Shown: positions 30 through 12,063, numbered from the stretch's first letter. The stretch is 64,000 nucleotides of DNA from Solirubrobacterales bacterium (GCA_016185345.1 JACPNS010000003.1:1-64000), one strand, 5' to 3'. The notes: generated from the sequence alone by a model not told the origin. Numbers and translations are program-made.

Positions 30-67
30 GATGTCTCGGCTCATCGTAGACATCTGTCTCCGATGTC
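17..67. terminator. 20-bp perfect hairpin at transposase 3' end
   Basis: Arms 17-36 and 48-67 are perfect inverted repeats of 20 bp around an 11-nt loop. The 3' arm touches the transposase stop codon (66-68, minus strand), so the transposase mRNA would fold here directly after translation ends. There is no T-run, so this is either an intrinsic-like terminator or a structural part of the IS end, since one arm includes most of the left terminal repeat. It could also block read-in transcription from flanking DNA. Confidence 0.6.
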
Positions 68-1214
68 ACGGCGGTCGCATCGGTTGGTAGTCCTTCGCCG
101 GGTCGATCGTTGCGCAACCGAGCAGCTCGCCCTGAACGTCAATCACGCGGACCTCAAGGCCGGCGACAAGCAGCCTCACGGTCTTGCCTTTGTGCCCGCG
201 CCCGACGCCCAGGTGCAGCAGCCTCGAACCGTGACGCAGGGTCACCTTTCCGAAGCGATCGACCTTGTCTTCTCTGACGCGGTAGTGCGGTCCTGTCCTT
301 GGATCCTTGGGGTGCGCCTTGACCTTGGCCGAGTAGACCGACAGCGGCGTAGCCCCGTTGTGGGCTCTGTGCGGGCGGATGTTGTTGTAGTGGTGGACGA
401 AGGCGTCGATCTGGCCTTGGAGCTGCTCGATCGTCGCTGCTGGCTTCTGGGCGGACAGGTAGTGCTTCATCGTCTGATGGAAGCGCTCGACCTTGGCACA
501 GGTCTGCGGGTGGTAGGGCCGAGAGTTCTTAAAGTCGACGCCCAAGCGCTCGCACTCGATCTCGAGTTTGACCCGCCCGCCGCGATAGCGACCGGTGAAC
601 ACGGCCCCATTGTCGGTCAGCAGGCTCTCGGGATATCCGTGGTAGTCGGCTGCCTTGGTGAATGTGGTGACAACGCTTTGCGCGGTGACGCTTTCATAGG
701 CATCTGCGGCAAGGCAGAGGCGCGAGTGGTCGTCGACGAAGTTGAGGATCTCGATGTCGCTGCCGTCTGCGAGCGGCCAGTGCGTGAAGTCGGCCTGCCA
801 CATCTGGTTTGGAAGCTCTGCGGCAAAGCGCACCAGCGAGGAGTGCGGGCGGCGCTTTGGCTGCGCCGTGACCTTCCCGGCCCGCGTCAAGATCCGCCAG
901 ATCGTTGAGACCGAAGTAGCCGCATCGATCTCGCGGGCGAGCAGGTAGTGGATCGTCTGGGCGCCGTTTTCGTGGCCGGCCTTTGTGAGTTCTTCGCGCA
1001 ACTCGAGCACGCGTTGCTGGATCTCCTGCGACGTCTGGTGCGAACACGAATGCGGCCGTCTTGATCTCGGCTCAAGGGCATCGAGACCGCCTGCCTTGTA
1101 ACGCGCCAGGAGCTTGTAAAGCCAGGACTTCGAAACACCATGAGTCGCTGCCAGGGAAGCGACGCTCACACCTTCAGTCAGGTGAGCTTCAACCAGATAA
1201 CGCGCCTTGTCCAA
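66..1214 (-). CDS. IS481-family transposase
   Basis: This 382-aa transposase should catalyse cut-and-join of the surrounding element. The N-terminal 50 residues form a helix-turn-helix (SVASLAATHGVSKSWLYKLL), followed by a second HTH-like region and an rve-type integrase core. The catalytic acidic triad is visible as D142 (MWQADFTHW), D201 (LLTDNGAV) and E243 (AKVERFHQ). The C-terminal part beyond residue 300 is a small beta-rich domain common to IS481/IS3 relatives. The listed start is TTG at 1212-1214, since no ATG fits the HTH. The frame is uninterrupted, so the enzyme looks functional. Confidence 0.9.
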   Translation of the reverse strand: MDKARYLVEAHLTEGVSVASLAATHGVSKSWLYKLLARYKAGGLDALEPRSRRPHSCSHQTSQEIQQRVLELREELTKAGHENGAQTIHYLLAREIDAATSVSTIWRILTRAGKVTAQPKRRPHSSLVRFAAELPNQMWQADFTHWPLADGSDIEILNFVDDHSRLCLAADAYESVTAQSVVTTFTKAADYHGYPESLLTDNGAVFTGRYRGGRVKLEIECERLGVDFKNSRPYHPQTCAKVERFHQTMKHYLSAQKPAATIEQLQGQIDAFVHHYNNIRPHRAHNGATPLSVYSAKVKAHPKDPRTGPHYRVREDKVDRFGKVTLRHGSRLLHLGVGRGHKGKTVRLLVAGLEVRVIDVQGELLGCATIDPAKDYQPMRPP

Positions 1215-3284: not shown

Positions 3285-4592
3285 GTGATGTCACCGATCC
3301 AGCTCGAACAGCCCGGCAAGAAGTTGATTGCCGCAGACCAGATCGATTACGTAGACCTCTACGCCCGTTGGGAGCAGGGCAACTGGTCGGCGATGGACCT
3401 CGATTTCACCCAGGACAAGATCGACTGGAACGAGAAGTTCGATGACTTCATGCGCAAGGCAGCGCGCTGGAACTACTCGCTGTTCTTCTTCGGCGAGGAC
3501 GAGGTGGCCGATCAGCTCTCGCCCTTCATCGACGCCGCTCCGCTCGAAGAGCACAAGTATTTCCTGACCACGCAGCAGGTCGATGAGGCGCGTCACGCGA
3601 TCTTCTTTTCGCGCTTCTTCAAGGAAGTGATCGGTGTCGATGGCGCGAGCTACGGCGATCGACTGAACGCTCTCGATCCGGATCTGACCTATGGGATCAA
3701 GAAGGTCTTCGAGTTGCTTAACAGCGTCACCGATGAGCTGCGCGCCGGCGATCACTCGAAGCCCAAGCTCGCCCAGGCGATCGCGTTGTACCACTTCATC
3801 GTCGAGGGCACGCTCGCGCAGACTGGCCAGCATTTCATCGCCGACTACCTCGAGCGCATGGACGTGCTTCCCGGATTTCGCGCGGGAATGCAGAACGTCG
3901 AGAAGGACGAGCAGCGCCACATCGCCTTTGGCGTCAAGCTGCTCGCCGACCTCAACCGTGAGGACCCCGAGGTGCGGCCCGCGGTGAGAGAAATTCTCGG
4001 CACGGTGCTGCCTTACGCGATCGGCGTGTTTCGTCCGCCGAATGACGACGAGCGATACATCGAAGTCTTCGGCGAGACCATGCTTGGCGTGGCCGTCACC
4101 GGCTCGAAGCAGCTTGAGATGCGCGTCGGCGCGGCCGGCTTTGATGCCTACGGCCCCGAGGGAGTCCTGCCGTTCATCGATCCCGATGTCACGCACGCCG
4201 AACGCGCATCGCGTGCATTCGTGATGCAGCGCGCTGGGTTCTTCAGCGGCGGCACAGAGAAAGTCAAGCCCGATGAAGAGGCGCTCGACTTCTACTTTGA
4301 CCTGGTCGCGGCAGCGGTTGTGCCTGACAACAAACTCAAGGGCCCAACGACGATCCTCTGGGACTTCACCGATACCGCGCCACGCTCGATCCGCATCGAG
4401 GGCGGCCGAGCGACCCCATCTACCGGTCCGGTCGCGAACCCTGACGTGACGTTCCGCACCGACCTTGCGACATGGATCGGAATCTCGGGCGGCTATGTGC
4501 AGCCCGGCCGCGCGCTGATGAAGCGCAAACTGAAGCTCAAGGGCAGCCCGCTCACGTTGGCCAAATTGCCCAGCGTGTTTCAGACGCCTTAG
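3285..4592 (+). CDS. ferritin-like (RNR R2-like) protein fused to SCP2-like lipid-binding domain
   Basis: The 435-aa protein has two parts. Residues about 40-290 form a ribonucleotide-reductase-small-subunit-like four-helix bundle. Its candidate di-metal ligands are visible: a Glu in FFFGEDEVAD (71 or 73), E101 and H104 (DEARH), E174 (FIVEGT), and E209 and H212 (EQRH). Residues about 330-435 look like an SCP2 sterol-carrier domain (ILWDFTDTAPRS, then PDVTFRTDLATWIGI). No large RNR subunit is nearby, so an oxidase or oxygenase acting on a bound lipid is a better guess than dNTP synthesis. GTG 3285 is chosen because GGAGG lies 8 nt upstream; ATG 3288 is the alternative. Confidence 0.82.
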   Translation: MMSPIQLEQPGKKLIAADQIDYVDLYARWEQGNWSAMDLDFTQDKIDWNEKFDDFMRKAARWNYSLFFFGEDEVADQLSPFIDAAPLEEHKYFLTTQQVDEARHAIFFSRFFKEVIGVDGASYGDRLNALDPDLTYGIKKVFELLNSVTDELRAGDHSKPKLAQAIALYHFIVEGTLAQTGQHFIADYLERMDVLPGFRAGMQNVEKDEQRHIAFGVKLLADLNREDPEVRPAVREILGTVLPYAIGVFRPPNDDERYIEVFGETMLGVAVTGSKQLEMRVGAAGFDAYGPEGVLPFIDPDVTHAERASRAFVMQRAGFFSGGTEKVKPDEEALDFYFDLVAAAVVPDNKLKGPTTILWDFTDTAPRSIRIEGGRATPSTGPVANPDVTFRTDLATWIGISGGYVQPGRALMKRKLKLKGSPLTLAKLPSVFQTP

Positions 4593-7871: not shown

Positions 7872-8640
7872 GATGACCGAGCGCGTGGAAAGTTGGCTTC
7901 AGGGCGCGCTCAGAGCAGAGGTGTCGGGCTCTTTGTCGATCGAACTAGTCGATCCGTAGGCGACAACGATGTTTGCCTGGTCTTTGAGAGGCAGAGTGGA
8001 CGTCTGCGAGACTGGTTTGCCGTCGACGAACACTGAGATCTTGTTGCTTCCCGACGCGACGTAGCCGCCGAGGGCCCTGGAGTTGAAAAGCACGCCCCAA
8101 ACGCCAAAGATATCTCCGAGCATGAATTTAAAGGGAGCGGGCGCTTCAACGTGGATCAAGCCGCTTTCTTCGTGTGTGTGAATCGGCGAGCCCATCGACC
8201 CGCCTTCTTGCGAGCCAATGTCACCGGGGATCACTACCTTCTCTCCGTCCACGTAGACGGTCAAAATCAAGTGAATATGGGACGGATCAGTGCCGGTCGT
8301 CGGAAATTTGAGCGCAACGAGGCGATCGGCCAGCTGCGTGTTTTCAGCCGGCCACGGCGGAACAGTCTCCTGTAGCCCCGGCAGATTCTTGCCAGTGACT
8401 GCGGCAAGACGGCTGGCCGTATTTTTTTGCTCGGAGCGCCCGCTCAGCAAGAGCGCGCCAGCTGCGACTGCAATCGCAAGGACTACTACAGAAGCTCCAC
8501 CGATGAGCTGAAAGCGCTTTACGCGCTTGCGCGCGGCCGCTGCTTCCGCCTCGGCCTTCAGTCGTTGTTCACGGGCCAGCTGTTTCTGTTCTTTGCGGGT
8601 AGCCATTTCGGGGACGGAGTCTAGTAAGTATCAAGCGCAG
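7872..8640. repeat. tandem duplication, copy A (gene plus flanks)
   Basis: This unit, holding the gene at 7899-8606 and short flanks, is repeated with high identity at 8910-9672. The match begins at GATGACCGAGCGCGTGG on the 3' side of the gene and ends just upstream of its ATG (GGACGGAGTCTAGTA against GGACGGAGTTTAGTA). The limits are read by eye. Confidence 0.8.
7899..8606 (-). CDS. membrane-anchored His-motif protein, copy A
   Basis: The 235-aa protein has a basic, Ala/Glu-rich N-terminal helix (residues 1-30, probably a cytoplasmic coiled coil) and one transmembrane helix (34-55). An extracytoplasmic domain follows with histidines H110 and H112 (SHIHLILTVYVDG), H143 and H145 (SPIHTHEESG) and H152 (LIHVEAP), then LGDIFGVWG. 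I recognise this as a widespread uncharacterised bacterial domain. The clustered histidines suggest metal binding (inference). It is duplicated at 8937-9641, which has lost one of these histidines. It lies downstream of, and on the same strand as, the CPTC membrane protein and the C39-like gene. Confidence 0.75.
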   Translation of the reverse strand: MATRKEQKQLAREQRLKAEAEAAAARKRVKRFQLIGGASVVVLAIAVAAGALLLSGRSEQKNTASRLAAVTGKNLPGLQETVPPWPAENTQLADRLVALKFPTTGTDPSHIHLILTVYVDGEKVVIPGDIGSQEGGSMGSPIHTHEESGLIHVEAPAPFKFMLGDIFGVWGVLFNSRALGGYVASGSNKISVFVDGKPVSQTSTLPLKDQANIVVAYGSTSSIDKEPDTSALSAP

Positions 8641-8909
8641 GCGTATTCGCTCACATTCGTCAATGGGCGTCAGTTCGAGCCGCCCCATTTAGATGACTGA
8701 TTCCAAGCCCCAGCAGCCAAAAGGGGATAAGACAGCGGCAGATCGAACCCGACGGTGTGATCTATCCGCTGTCGACCCAAGGAGGCCGCGATGCTCGCCG
8801 ACCTCGATCTGCTGCTTACTGAGGTTTTATGGGCGCTTCCTGCCCGTGGCGAGGAAGCGACTCGACCACCTCTTCCCGCAGCTTCCCCAGCAGCCTGGAT
8901 TCCACGAAA
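8641..8909. other. spacer between duplicated genes, holds transposase debris
   Basis: This 269-bp interval between the repeat copies has no complete gene. It contains transposase debris at 8791-8914 and otherwise nothing recognisable. Transcription from copy B toward copy A must cross it. Confidence 0.6.
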
Positions 8910-8914
8910 GATGA
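8791..8914 (+). pseudogene. decayed transposase fragment (IS982-like N-terminus)
   Basis: An AAGGAGG ribosome-site-like sequence precedes ATG 8791, which opens MLADLDLLLTEVLW, like the start of actinobacterial IS982-type transposases. About 40 bp further on the similarity moves to another frame, giving RFLPVARKRLDHLFPQLPQQ and then PGFHER to a stop at 8912-8914. The HLFP.LPQQPG block is characteristic of the same family around residue 80-100. The pieces are joined by a deletion plus frameshift, so the gene is dead. It ends within a few bases of the start of repeat copy B, which hints that the IS took part in the duplication. Confidence 0.6.
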
Positions 8915-9672
8915 CCGAGCGCGTGGAAGGTTGGCGTCAGGGGTTCAGAGCAGAGGTGTCGGGCTCTTTATCAATCGAAGTTGTCGATCCGTAGGCGACA
9001 ACGATGTTTGCCTGGTCTTTGAGAGGCAGAGTGGACGTCTGCGAGACTGGCTTGCCGTCGACGAACACTGAGATCTTGTTGCTCCCCGACGCGACGTAGC
9101 CGCCGAGGGCCCTAGAGTTGAAAAGCACGCCCCAAACGCCAAAGATATCTCCGAGCGCGTATGGAAATTGCGCAGGCGATTCAACGTGGATCACGCCGTT
9201 GGCTTCGTGTGTGTTTATCGGCGAGCCTACGGACTCACCTTCTTGCGAGCCGAGCTCACTTGGGACTATTGTCTTCTTGCCATCCACGTAGACGGTCAGC
9301 ATCACGTGATAATGGACCGGATCATCGCCGGTCGTCGGAAGTTTGAGTGCATCCAGACGATCGGCCAACTGCGTGTCTTCAGCTGGCCACGGCGGAACAG
9401 TCTCCTGTAGTCCAGGCAGGTTATTTCCAGTGAGTGCGGCAACACGGCTGGCGGCAGTTTTCTCGTCGGAGCGCCCGCTCAGCGACAGCGCACCCGCGGC
9501 AACTGCAATCGCAATGACACTCGCGGAAGCGGCACCGATCAGCTGCAAGCGCTTGACGCGGCTACGCGCAGCCGCTGCTTCCGCCTCGGCCTTGAGTCGT
9601 TGTTCACGGGCCAACTGTTTCTGTTCTTTGCGGCTGGCCATTGCGAGGACGGAGTTTAGTATCAAGCTCAGC
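8910..9672. repeat. tandem duplication, copy B (gene plus flanks)
   Basis: Second copy of the unit at 7872-8640. The two units have almost equal length (about 763 and 769 bp) and the same gene content. Confidence 0.8.
8937..9641 (-). CDS. membrane-anchored His-motif protein, copy B
   Basis: The 234-aa paralogue of copy A has the same basic N-terminus, transmembrane helix and ectodomain. Of the five ectodomain histidines in copy A, four are kept (H110, H112, H145, H152), while H143 is Asn (SPINTHEANG). The C-terminal third (residues about 170-225, NSRALGGYVASGSNKISVFV) is nearly identical between copies and the central domain has diverged more. That pattern suggests partial functional separation or gene conversion of the 3' part. 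ATG 9641 is chosen because it aligns with the start of copy A; an upstream TTG (9665) would add eight residues. Confidence 0.75.
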   Translation of the reverse strand: MASRKEQKQLAREQRLKAEAEAAAARSRVKRLQLIGAASASVIAIAVAAGALSLSGRSDEKTAASRVAALTGNNLPGLQETVPPWPAEDTQLADRLDALKLPTTGDDPVHYHVMLTVYVDGKKTIVPSELGSQEGESVGSPINTHEANGVIHVESPAQFPYALGDIFGVWGVLFNSRALGGYVASGSNKISVFVDGKPVSQTSTLPLKDQANIVVAYGSTTSIDKEPDTSALNP

Positions 9673-9722
9673 CGTTTATGCTATCGGTGATGCTCGTAGG
9701 GATGGTCGGCGCTGTGGAGCCT

Positions 9723-10253
9723 TCAGACGGCTGGCTCGCTCGCGAGTTCACACCTGCCTGCGGGGCCGGCAACTGGGATGCATCGGCCGCGCAAAGCCCT
9801 GAATCTGAGACCCAGAGCAAGGGCACCGAGGCCGACTGACAGCGCGCCGAGAATCGGCTGAACCGGGCCGAAGTAGGTGACCGCGCCGGAAAAGCCGAGC
9901 AAGCCCACGATCAATTTGTTGCAGGTCGGGCAGCCGATTGCCAGCCAGCCGAGAACACCACCCGTTGCACCGAAGCGCGTCCCGTTCTGACGACCAAAAC
10001 TTGAGCCGGTAGCAAAGACTGCGCCGGTCAACAGGCTACTGAGAACAAGAAAAGCGTAGTCGTAGGGCGCGACCGGCGTCATTCGCGTAAACCAAGGATT
10101 GGCTATCACATCGGTTGGCAGGCCGATGACGGCTGCGACAGCGAGAGCGATCAACACGCTTCGCAACAGGAACGACGGTCCAAGTGCGCCCAGAAGTTCG
10201 AGGTTTGTCGCTGGTCGAAACTCCGAGCGGGCCGGGTCGGCGCCTTCTGTCAT
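9723..10253 (-). CDS. multi-pass membrane protein with CPTC motif
   Basis: The 176-aa protein has about four transmembrane segments (LLRSVLIALAVAAVIGLP, AFLVLSSLLTGAVFATG, GGVLGWLAIGCPTCNKLIVG, ILGALSVGLGALALGL). A conserved-looking GCPTCNK motif at the membrane face contains a CxxC pair that could form a redox disulfide or bind metal. Its start overlaps the stop of the upstream C39-like gene by 4 bp (ATGA), so translation is probably coupled. The two His-motif proteins lie downstream on the same strand. I do not know a named function. Confidence 0.7.
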   Translation of the reverse strand: MTEGADPARSEFRPATNLELLGALGPSFLLRSVLIALAVAAVIGLPTDVIANPWFTRMTPVAPYDYAFLVLSSLLTGAVFATGSSFGRQNGTRFGATGGVLGWLAIGCPTCNKLIVGLLGFSGAVTYFGPVQPILGALSVGLGALALGLRFRALRGRCIPVAGPAGRCELASEPAV

Positions 10254-11197
10254 ACGGCCACGGAGCGCTTACCGAGCAACGTCCACATCGCTTCAAACTC
10301 GGACTGCGACATTTCTTTGCGTGTGCCGGTGAGCGGGTCGACCATGCGCAACGTGCCCGTACGGTCAATGCCGGTGAGCACAACGGTGTGTTCGTTGAGA
10401 TTTACGTTGACCGGCTTTCCCGACTTTGTTACCCAGCTCGTGAACGGTCCGTCTCCTAGCCCCATCCATGCCATCACGGCGCGTCCGCTGAGCAGTTTGT
10501 CGTAAATCTCAGAGGCCGACCCCCCGGTCATGTTCGTCAGCTTGACACGGTATTTCGACGCGAGTTCAATGATCGGCTTCGGGTAAACCCCAAATCCGCC
10601 GGCAACACCTCCGCCGTCGGGTCGGCCGACATAACCGAGTTCCGGGTCGCCCCAGACTCGCGAAGCTCCGACGCCCACTGGGTCCAGCGGCCCGTCGCGC
10701 CGCAAGCGCTGCTGCAAGGTCAGCTGAGGGACACGGACACCTTCGGTTGCCAGAAGCACCTCGAGGGCTGCGGACTCACAGATGTTTCGGAGCTTCTGCT
10801 TGAGCACAGGCGCCGCGATCGTTGCTGCGACGGGTTCGGTAGCCACGTTGACAGTGCCGCCGGCGCTGCCGAGTGAGACGGCTTCGGCTGCCGCCGAAGA
10901 TCGGTCGAGAGCGAGGGTGATGCGTGCGCGTCCACGACGATCAACCATGGTGGCCGGGAGTTTGTTGCGGACAACGCGACTCAGCTGCGCCTGGCCCGCA
11001 GCTGTTTGAAGGGCAAAGGGCTCGAGCGGGATGCGCGCGACGGTCTTCTGCTTGAGTTCGAGACGGAGAACGGGCGGGGCTTTTTCGGGGGAATTCCGCG
11101 ACCCGCTTGCGCCAGTTGCGTAAGCGACTACGACGATTCCGAAAAGCAACGGCAATATGACCGCAAGGCGACGCCTCCGGTAGATCGATTTCTGCAT
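10250..11197 (-). CDS. secreted C39-like (papain-fold) protein
   Basis: The 315-aa protein has an N-terminal membrane anchor or signal (AVILPLLFGIVVVAYATG) and a linker with a beta-rich region. A peptidase C39-like domain covers about residues 135-315. The probable catalytic residues are the Cys in RNICESAALEVLLA, the His in NLNEHTVVLTGID and the Asp in RMVDPLTGTR. Secreted C39_2 proteins cleave, or simply bind, Gly-Gly-type or cell-wall substrates. Here there is no ABC exporter, so bacteriocin processing is unlikely. ATG 11197 is used; TTG 11203 is the longer alternative. First gene of a probable four-gene minus-strand unit. Confidence 0.78.
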   Translation of the reverse strand: MQKSIYRRRRLAVILPLLFGIVVVAYATGASGSRNSPEKAPPVLRLELKQKTVARIPLEPFALQTAAGQAQLSRVVRNKLPATMVDRRGRARITLALDRSSAAAEAVSLGSAGGTVNVATEPVAATIAAPVLKQKLRNICESAALEVLLATEGVRVPQLTLQQRLRRDGPLDPVGVGASRVWGDPELGYVGRPDGGGVAGGFGVYPKPIIELASKYRVKLTNMTGGSASEIYDKLLSGRAVMAWMGLGDGPFTSWVTKSGKPVNVNLNEHTVVLTGIDRTGTLRMVDPLTGTRKEMSQSEFEAMWTLLGKRSVAV

Positions 11198-11307: not shown

Positions 11308-12063
11308 ATGAGCGGCGCGAGGAAAAACTGGGATCAGTACGTCACGAACGCCGAAGAGATCGCGAGAACTCCTGGGTTCAGGGCGCTGAAAGATCAGATC
11401 GTTCGGCTGTCCGGTAGCGTCGACGGTCTGACGGTCGCAGATATAGGTTCGGGCACGGGCCTGCTCACTCTCGAAATGGCCCCGACCGCCGAAAAGATAT
11501 GGGCGATCGACATTTCCGAACGCATGGCCGGCTACCTCAAAGCGAAGGCATCCAGCGCCAAATTCACGAACGTCGAGACCGTGGTTGCCTCGGCCGCAAG
11601 CCTTCCGCTAGTAGACGAGAGCGTCGATGTCGTGGTATCCAACTACTGCTTTCACCATCTTTCTGAAGAGGGCAAACGCAGCGCCATCAACGAGGTTTTT
11701 CGCGTACTCCGTCCCGGTGGGAAATTCGTATTCGGCGACATGATGTTCAATGTCAGCGTCGTGGATGCGCGTGATCGCAAGCTCCTCGCCTCAAAGGTCC
11801 GAGCGATTCTGTCCCGAGGAGTTCCCGGTCTGATCCGTGTGCTCAAGAATGTGATCTTGTTCGTGACTGGCCGTTGGGAGCAGCCCGCCCGAAGCGAGTG
11901 GTGGACGGACGCGCTCACAAACGCGGGTTTCTCGGACGTTCGCGTAGAGGCGCTTGAACACGAGGGCGGAGTCGCCAGTGCGATGCGGCCTATGGAAGAT
12001 GCTCGCGTCGGCGACACCGCACCGGCGCGCGAGAGCGTCGAGACGTCGCAAATCACAACCTGA
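11308..12063 (+). CDS. class I SAM-dependent methyltransferase
   Basis: The 251-aa protein has the Rossmann-fold Methyltransf_11 signatures: motif I VADIGSGTGLLTLEM, an acidic residue after the second strand (WAIDISERM), post-I VASAASLPLVDESVDVVVSN and a FRVLRPGGKFVFGDM block. It would transfer a methyl group from S-adenosylmethionine to a small molecule; the substrate cannot be read. AAGGAGA lies about 12 nt before ATG 11308. It is divergent from the C39-like cluster. Confidence 0.85.
   Translation: MSGARKNWDQYVTNAEEIARTPGFRALKDQIVRLSGSVDGLTVADIGSGTGLLTLEMAPTAEKIWAIDISERMAGYLKAKASSAKFTNVETVVASAASLPLVDESVDVVVSNYCFHHLSEEGKRSAINEVFRVLRPGGKFVFGDMMFNVSVVDARDRKLLASKVRAILSRGVPGLIRVLKNVILFVTGRWEQPARSEWWTDALTNAGFSDVRVEALEHEGGVASAMRPMEDARVGDTAPARESVETSQITT

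What the first reader, a model, noticed from the sequence alone, without database searches (positions are those of the whole stretch)
7899..11197. Uncharacterised envelope cluster: C39-like protein, CPTC membrane protein and duplicated His-motif proteins
Four minus-strand genes lie in line: a secreted papain-fold (C39-like) protein, a small membrane protein with a GCPTCNK motif overlapping it by 4 bp, and two membrane-anchored proteins whose ectodomains carry HxH, HTH and IHVE histidine motifs. Clustered His plus a membrane CxxC suggests metal or redox handling at the cell surface, with the C39-like protein as processing or binding partner. I know of no named system with this composition. The 4-bp overlap and motifs are seen; the functional link is inferred.
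Basis: partly seen in the sequence, partly recalled or inferred. Interest (0 to 1): 0.75.

Follow-up and report, generated by a model that had tools for sequence, protein, structure and literature searches.

The report
Envelope metal-handling genes, uncharacterised families
Four neighbouring genes in an actinobacterium belong to families that elsewhere sit beside copper and heavy-metal defence genes, including a widespread, unnamed cell-surface protein with a nearly unchanged set of metal-binding-type residues and a small membrane protein that distantly resembles the mercury transporter MerT.

Summary
The genes are real, but the four-gene "system" is not a fixed unit. CPTC (9723-10253) and C39 (10250-11197) overlap by 4 bp and stay adjacent only in one sister species, whose His gene lies on another contig beside CcdA. 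The metal idea holds up better. CPTC homologues lie near copper/heavy-metal or thiol-redox genes in 12/19 independently sampled loci against 0/60 control windows, and the second half of CPTC matches MerT profiles (hhalign 88%, unrelated families <=5%). The His family has no Pfam, NCBIfam or PDB match. It spans Actinomycetota, Patescibacteria, Nitrospirae, Chloroflexi and archaea, with five His and one Glu present in 60-62 of 62 aligned members. Its confident predicted fold is beta-grasp-like. It adjoins metal P-type ATPases or DsbA in some lineages (18/75 loci) but not in most Thermoleophilia. His and CPTC genes recur close together in three unrelated lineages. Best reading: parts of a soft-metal (probably copper) handling module at the envelope. 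Metal binding, specificity and direction are untested. The second His copy has lost one conserved histidine (NTH).

The parts
7899..8606 (-). His protein A: basic N-terminus, one membrane anchor, extracytoplasmic beta-grasp-like domain with HIH (110-112), HTH (143-145), IHVE (His152, Glu154)
   Evidence: no Pfam/NCBIfam family
8937..9641 (-). His protein B: tandem duplicate of A; HYH, NTH (first His lost), IHVE
9723..10253 (-). CPTC protein: four predicted membrane segments, GCPTCNK in the third, near-invariant Cys158 after the fourth; second half MerT-like
10250..11197 (-). C39-like (papain-fold) protein, N-terminal signal/anchor, catalytic Cys and His retained
   Evidence: Pfam Peptidase_C39_2 7.7e-17, PDB 3erv 1e-15, Cys 18/18 rows and His in all but one genome
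11308..12063 (+). class I SAM-dependent methyltransferase, divergent from C39; conserved partner of C39
   Evidence: Pfam Methyltransf_25 1.5e-23; adjacency in 14 of 16 genomes

Best explanation
The cluster is a locally assembled set of parts of an envelope soft-metal (most likely copper) handling system. The His proteins are membrane-anchored, outward-facing beta-grasp-like domains whose HxH...HTH...HxE residues bind a metal ion outside the membrane (inferred). The CPTC protein is a four-helix membrane protein whose second half is MerT-like. Its intramembrane CxxC and C-terminal Cys158 would pass a thiolate-bound metal across the membrane, or hold it there (inferred by analogy with MerT Cys24/25 to Cys76/82, PMC5715351). 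The C39 protein with its neighbouring methyltransferase is an accessory envelope pair of copper islands, a likely active cysteine hydrolase of unknown substrate. Shown: gene anatomy, family conservation, neighbourhoods, profile match, fold prediction. Not shown: metal binding, transport, direction, metal identity, or that the four products act together.
For: CPTC homologues: 15/15 order-level and 12/19 independent phylum-level loci within 5 kb of metal or thiol-redox genes (Cu-type P-ATPase, CopY/BlaI, M56, DUF305, CDF, ArsR, MerR, multicopper oxidase, CcdA, DsbA, TlpA); 0/60 control windows, Fisher p about 1e-9. Named examples: a Pseudonocardia plasmid with DsbA-CcdA-CPTC after CopY-M56; the M. 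chubuense pMYCCH.01 island holding both CPTC and His. His homologues: directly after a P-type ATPase with a divergent MerR regulator on Streptomyces pFRL4 and M. abscessus pGD22; 18/75 loci near ATPase/DsbA/CopY and similar genes against 0/60 (p about 1e-5); in Patescibacteria L215, DsbA-His-(HMA/DsbD_2/cupredoxin fusion)-HMA-cupredoxin-ATPase-CopA. His and CPTC recur together in the window, in genus g128 (5.5 kb apart, with MCO/ArsR/CDF) and in Patescibacteria L197 (His-DsbA-CPTC-CopB-like ATPase with heavy-metal-binding domain). C39: next to CopY/M56, MCO or DUF305 in 5/8 loci. MerT profile match 88.4%, E 2.8e-6; controls about 5% or less. Five His and one Glu in 60-62 of 62 relatives.
Against: No metal regulator (CopY, ArsR, MerR) or ATPase of the marker set lies in the window itself. 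The genome's own heavy-metal island (DUF305, CadA- and CopB-like ATPases, ArsR, F510) is on another contig, and its CopA is about 60 kb away. Most His loci in Thermoleophilia have no metal neighbour (3/24 phylum-level, all from one genus). Some are next to cysK. Copy B has lost a conserved His. Histidine geometry was not measured. The MerT match covers only about 70 columns.
Confidence: 0.55

Rival explanations
1. Envelope thiol-disulfide relay: CPTC is a membrane thiol oxidoreductase working with CcdA, DsbA and TlpA, and the His proteins serve that pathway (for example cytochrome or cuproprotein maturation) rather than metal transport.
For: DsbA-CcdA-CPTC operon, CcdA/DsbA beside CPTC, DsbA directly before His genes in Patescibacteria, CcdA directly before His in sister genome G001, invariant CxxC.
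Against: Metal genes are near CPTC more often than thiol genes (11 against 4 of 19 phylum-level loci). The profile match is to MerT; no match to CcdA. The window has no CcdA, DsbA or TlpA beside the cluster.
Confidence: 0.2
2. The four genes are mere neighbours: a C39-methyltransferase pair plus CPTC plus a duplicated His gene brought together by chance, with no joint function.
For: The four-gene order is seen only in the window. G001 separates the His gene, G116 has C39 and CPTC 12 kb apart. C39-CPTC and His-C39 co-occurrence is not significant (p 0.07 and 0.22).
Against: Three of the four families independently track metal islands; His and CPTC are close together again in two other lineages; a 4-bp overlap links C39 and CPTC in the window and the genes stay adjacent in G001.
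Confidence: 0.2
3. The His domain is a beta-grasp ligand-binding domain of SLBB type for a non-metal ligand such as a corrinoid, haem or glycan; the histidines shape that pocket.
For: Nearest PDB folds are the cobalamin-binding beta domain of transcobalamin (5np4, TM-score 0.59 by target length) and 3u7z (0.56).
Against: No Foldseek E-value below 0.001. Neighbour genes are metal and redox, not corrinoid. Several conserved His plus Glu are typical of metal sites.
Confidence: 0.05

Closest known systems
MerT/MerF/MerC-type mercuric ion transporters (with periplasmic MerP)
   Same: CPTC residues about 89-160 align with MerT TM1-TM2 and its cytoplasmic Cys76: Cys pair in a membrane helix, LGxSGA motif, following helix, Cys after it. 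Small extracytoplasmic metal binder plus small membrane protein is the MerP-MerT layout.
   Different: CxxC instead of CC; an extra N-terminal two-helix half with an invariant Pro and conserved Arg; no MerA or MerP nearby; no Pfam MerT hit. MerP is an HMA-type protein; the His protein has no HMA match.
Actinobacterial copper-resistance islands (CopY/BlaI + M56, CopA, DUF305, multicopper oxidase, TlpA, CcdA), e.g. M. chubuense pMYCCH.01
   Same: CPTC, His and C39-methyltransferase homologues occur in such islands.
   Different: The window lacks the regulator, ATPase, oxidase and DUF305 parts.
SLBB / transcobalamin beta-domain beta-grasp proteins
   Same: Similar predicted topology of the His domain (superfamily described in PMC1796856).
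   Different: No significant E-value; conserved HxH/HTH/HxE not described for that superfamily in the passages read.
Peptidase C39-like family (PF13529), PDB 3erv
   Same: Significant family match, Cys/His retained.
   Different: Stand-alone secreted protein paired with a methyltransferase; not an ABC-transporter peptidase domain.

Membership tests
MerT mercuric transporter family | Curated family score (Pfam MerT, NCBIfam PRK13751) | tested here: not met
   No Pfam MerT hit for any of 15 CPTC members; one homologue reaches 22.5 bits against a cut-off of 150
MerT mercuric transporter family | Profile similarity over the Cys-pair helix, next helix and cytoplasmic Cys | tested here: met
   hhalign 88.4%, E 2.8e-6; 59%, E 9.3e-5 with fewer members; unrelated families and 40 block-shuffled alignments at most 5.3%
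MerT mercuric transporter family | merR/merP/merA operon | tested here: not met
   Not seen around the cluster; CPTC neighbours elsewhere are copper/zinc-type genes
MerT mercuric transporter family | Hg(II) transport | not testable with these tools
   needs an uptake assay
Actinobacterial copper island | CopY/BlaI + M56 or copper ATPase within a few kb | tested here: not met
   No marker in the window besides the parts themselves; no Penicillinase_R in the genome; CopA about 60 kb away
Peptidase_C39_2 (PF13529) | Score above gathering and catalytic Cys/His | tested here: met
   62.6 bits against 24; Cys in 18/18 rows, His in all but one genome
SLBB-type beta-grasp | Significant structural similarity | tested here: inconclusive
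   pLDDT 90.5, pTM 0.88; best E 9e-3, TMt up to 0.59
Histidine metal site in the His domain | Conserved His/Glu | tested here: met
   60-62 of 62 sequences at each of six positions; five divergent Propionibacteriales homologues that lack HxH were left out of that alignment
Histidine metal site in the His domain | Side chains near one another | not testable with these tools
   model coordinates are not released; two of the motifs lie on strands 54-64 and 95-100 of the model

The most novel reading that the evidence does not exclude
The His-motif beta-grasp protein is a new, cross-phylum family of extracytoplasmic metal-binding proteins that hands soft metal to a MerT-like CxxCN membrane protein: a MerP-MerT-like pair built from different proteins and serving copper rather than mercury.
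Probability: 0.22. Interest if true: 0.75.

Novelty: new variant of a known kind. Interest (0 to 1): 0.5.

Why it matters
Both membrane-associated families are hypothetical proteins in the plasmid records examined and have no curated family, yet they recur beside copper and heavy-metal ATPases, including on mycobacterial and streptomycete plasmids and in Patescibacteria. If they bind and pass metal, they add a surface metal-binding fold and a MerT-like membrane step to bacterial copper biology, and give a direct test for many unannotated genes in metal islands.

Tried and rejected
AlphaFold of CPTC from a single sequence was useless (pLDDT 57). Viral contigs holds no CPTC relative. Foldseek against viral structures gave nothing. 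PDB profile hits of the His alignment to WD-40 proteins are repeat artefacts with no stretch passing on its own. No sigma-70 promoter match and no terminator excess; no Rfam family. N-terminal-only hits of the His protein (residues 1-70) include DsbA-type thioredoxins that share a similar basic membrane anchor and were not counted as homologues. Paper searches found no description of these families. Rejected: one conserved four-gene system; C39 as bacteriocin-export peptidase (no ABC transporter in the cluster).

Full report
Anatomy. Four minus-strand genes are confirmed: C39-like 10250-11197, CPTC 9723-10253 sharing ATGA with it, His-B 8937-9641 and His-A 7899-8606. His-A and His-B are a tandem duplication (86% DNA identity over about 770 bp). 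Their differences cluster in residues 101-160, the motif region, while residues 181-220 are identical in protein. His-B has lost one motif histidine (NTH instead of HTH). A divergent methyltransferase begins at 11308.

Families. Pfam and NCBIfam know neither the His proteins nor CPTC. The C39 protein is an ordinary PF13529 member with catalytic residues kept. CPTC homologues share GCPxCNK and a Cys after the last helix. Their second half matches a MerT profile at 88% (E 2.8e-6), whereas CcdA, M56, CDF, P-ATPase, DsbA and block-shuffled controls reach at most about 5%. With the smaller alignment A2 the figure is 59%, so I call it MerT-like and not a MerT. The charge pattern (Arg-rich tail) fits N-in/C-in topology and puts Cys158 on the cytoplasmic side, as in MerT; this is inference from sequence.

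His family. The scan of GTDB genomes found 75 loci in Solirubrobacterales and other Actinomycetota, many Patescibacteria, Nitrospirae, Chloroflexi, Gemmatimonadetes, Cyanobacteria, Thaumarchaeota and other archaea. Five His and one Glu are kept in 60-62 of 62 aligned members; five divergent Propionibacteriales members without HxH were left out of that alignment. AlphaFold gives a confident model (pLDDT 90.5, pTM 0.88). Foldseek finds no significant PDB match; the nearest are beta-grasp domains of transcobalamin and 3u7z.

Neighbourhoods. Markers were taken from annotated plasmid islands and a few order-level loci. They were then applied to independently drawn phylum-level and GTDB loci and to 60 control windows of 10 kb from genomes of the same samples. 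CPTC: 12/19 against 0/60. His: 18/75 GTDB loci and 3/24 phylum loci (one genus) against 0/60. C39: 5/8 order-level loci. Some marker sequences come from order-level loci, so the order-level counts are partly circular; the phylum-level counts are not, and the GTDB set overlaps the order-level set in some genomes. Related genomes are not independent events, so p-values are optimistic. Many contigs are short, so absences are uncertain.

Co-location. His and CPTC occur close together in the window, in genus g128 (with multicopper oxidase, ArsR and CDF), in Patescibacteria L197 (His-DsbA-CPTC-CopB-like ATPase), and 15 kb apart in the M. chubuense island. Genome-level co-occurrence in the order is 6 against 2.2 expected (p 0.01). 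CPTC and C39 are adjacent only in the window's genus; in G116 they lie 12 kb apart in one island. C39 is paired with the methyltransferase in 14 of 16 genomes.

Own genome. The same genome holds a heavy-metal island on contig C4 (DUF305, CadA- and CopB-like ATPases, ArsR, F510) and a CopA about 60 kb from the cluster, but no CopY/BlaI repressor.

Mechanism. Most likely the His ectodomain holds a soft metal outside the membrane and CPTC relays or buffers it through intramembrane thiols. C39 and the methyltransferase are accessory envelope or island functions. Direction (import, export supply or storage) is not decidable from sequence. The chief rival is a thiol-redox role with CcdA and DsbA. 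Verdict: a real, moderately interesting set of uncharacterised families in a known kind of setting; the four-gene system as such is not supported.

Noticed in passing
window 11308-12063: Class I methyltransferase is the conserved partner of the C39 gene, divergent or in the same direction, in 14 of 16 genomes checked.
   Followed up: yes
window 7899-9641: Amino-acid changes between the two His copies concentrate in residues 101-160 while residues 181-220 are identical, suggesting partial gene conversion or divergence of the motif region.
   Followed up: partly
L197:3276-3962 and L192:8431-9237: Patescibacterial Cys-rich secreted-looking proteins (CCCKCWH-type motif in L197) beside His and DsbA genes in metal islands; no Pfam hit.
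   Followed up: no
L226, L227, L230, L234, L240: Propionibacteriales homologues keep HTHD but lack the HxH motif and the IHxE histidine: a diverged subfamily.
   Followed up: no
window 3285-4592: Ribonucleotide-reductase-small-chain-like protein fused to an SCP2 domain.
   Followed up: no
window 66-1214: IS481-like integrase-core transposase near the window edge.
   Followed up: no
L250 (G000:C4:56000-73000): Own-genome heavy-metal island: DUF305, CadA-like ATPase, ArsR, CopB-like ATPase with an unusual CPD motif and His-rich N-terminus, F510 protein.
   Followed up: partly
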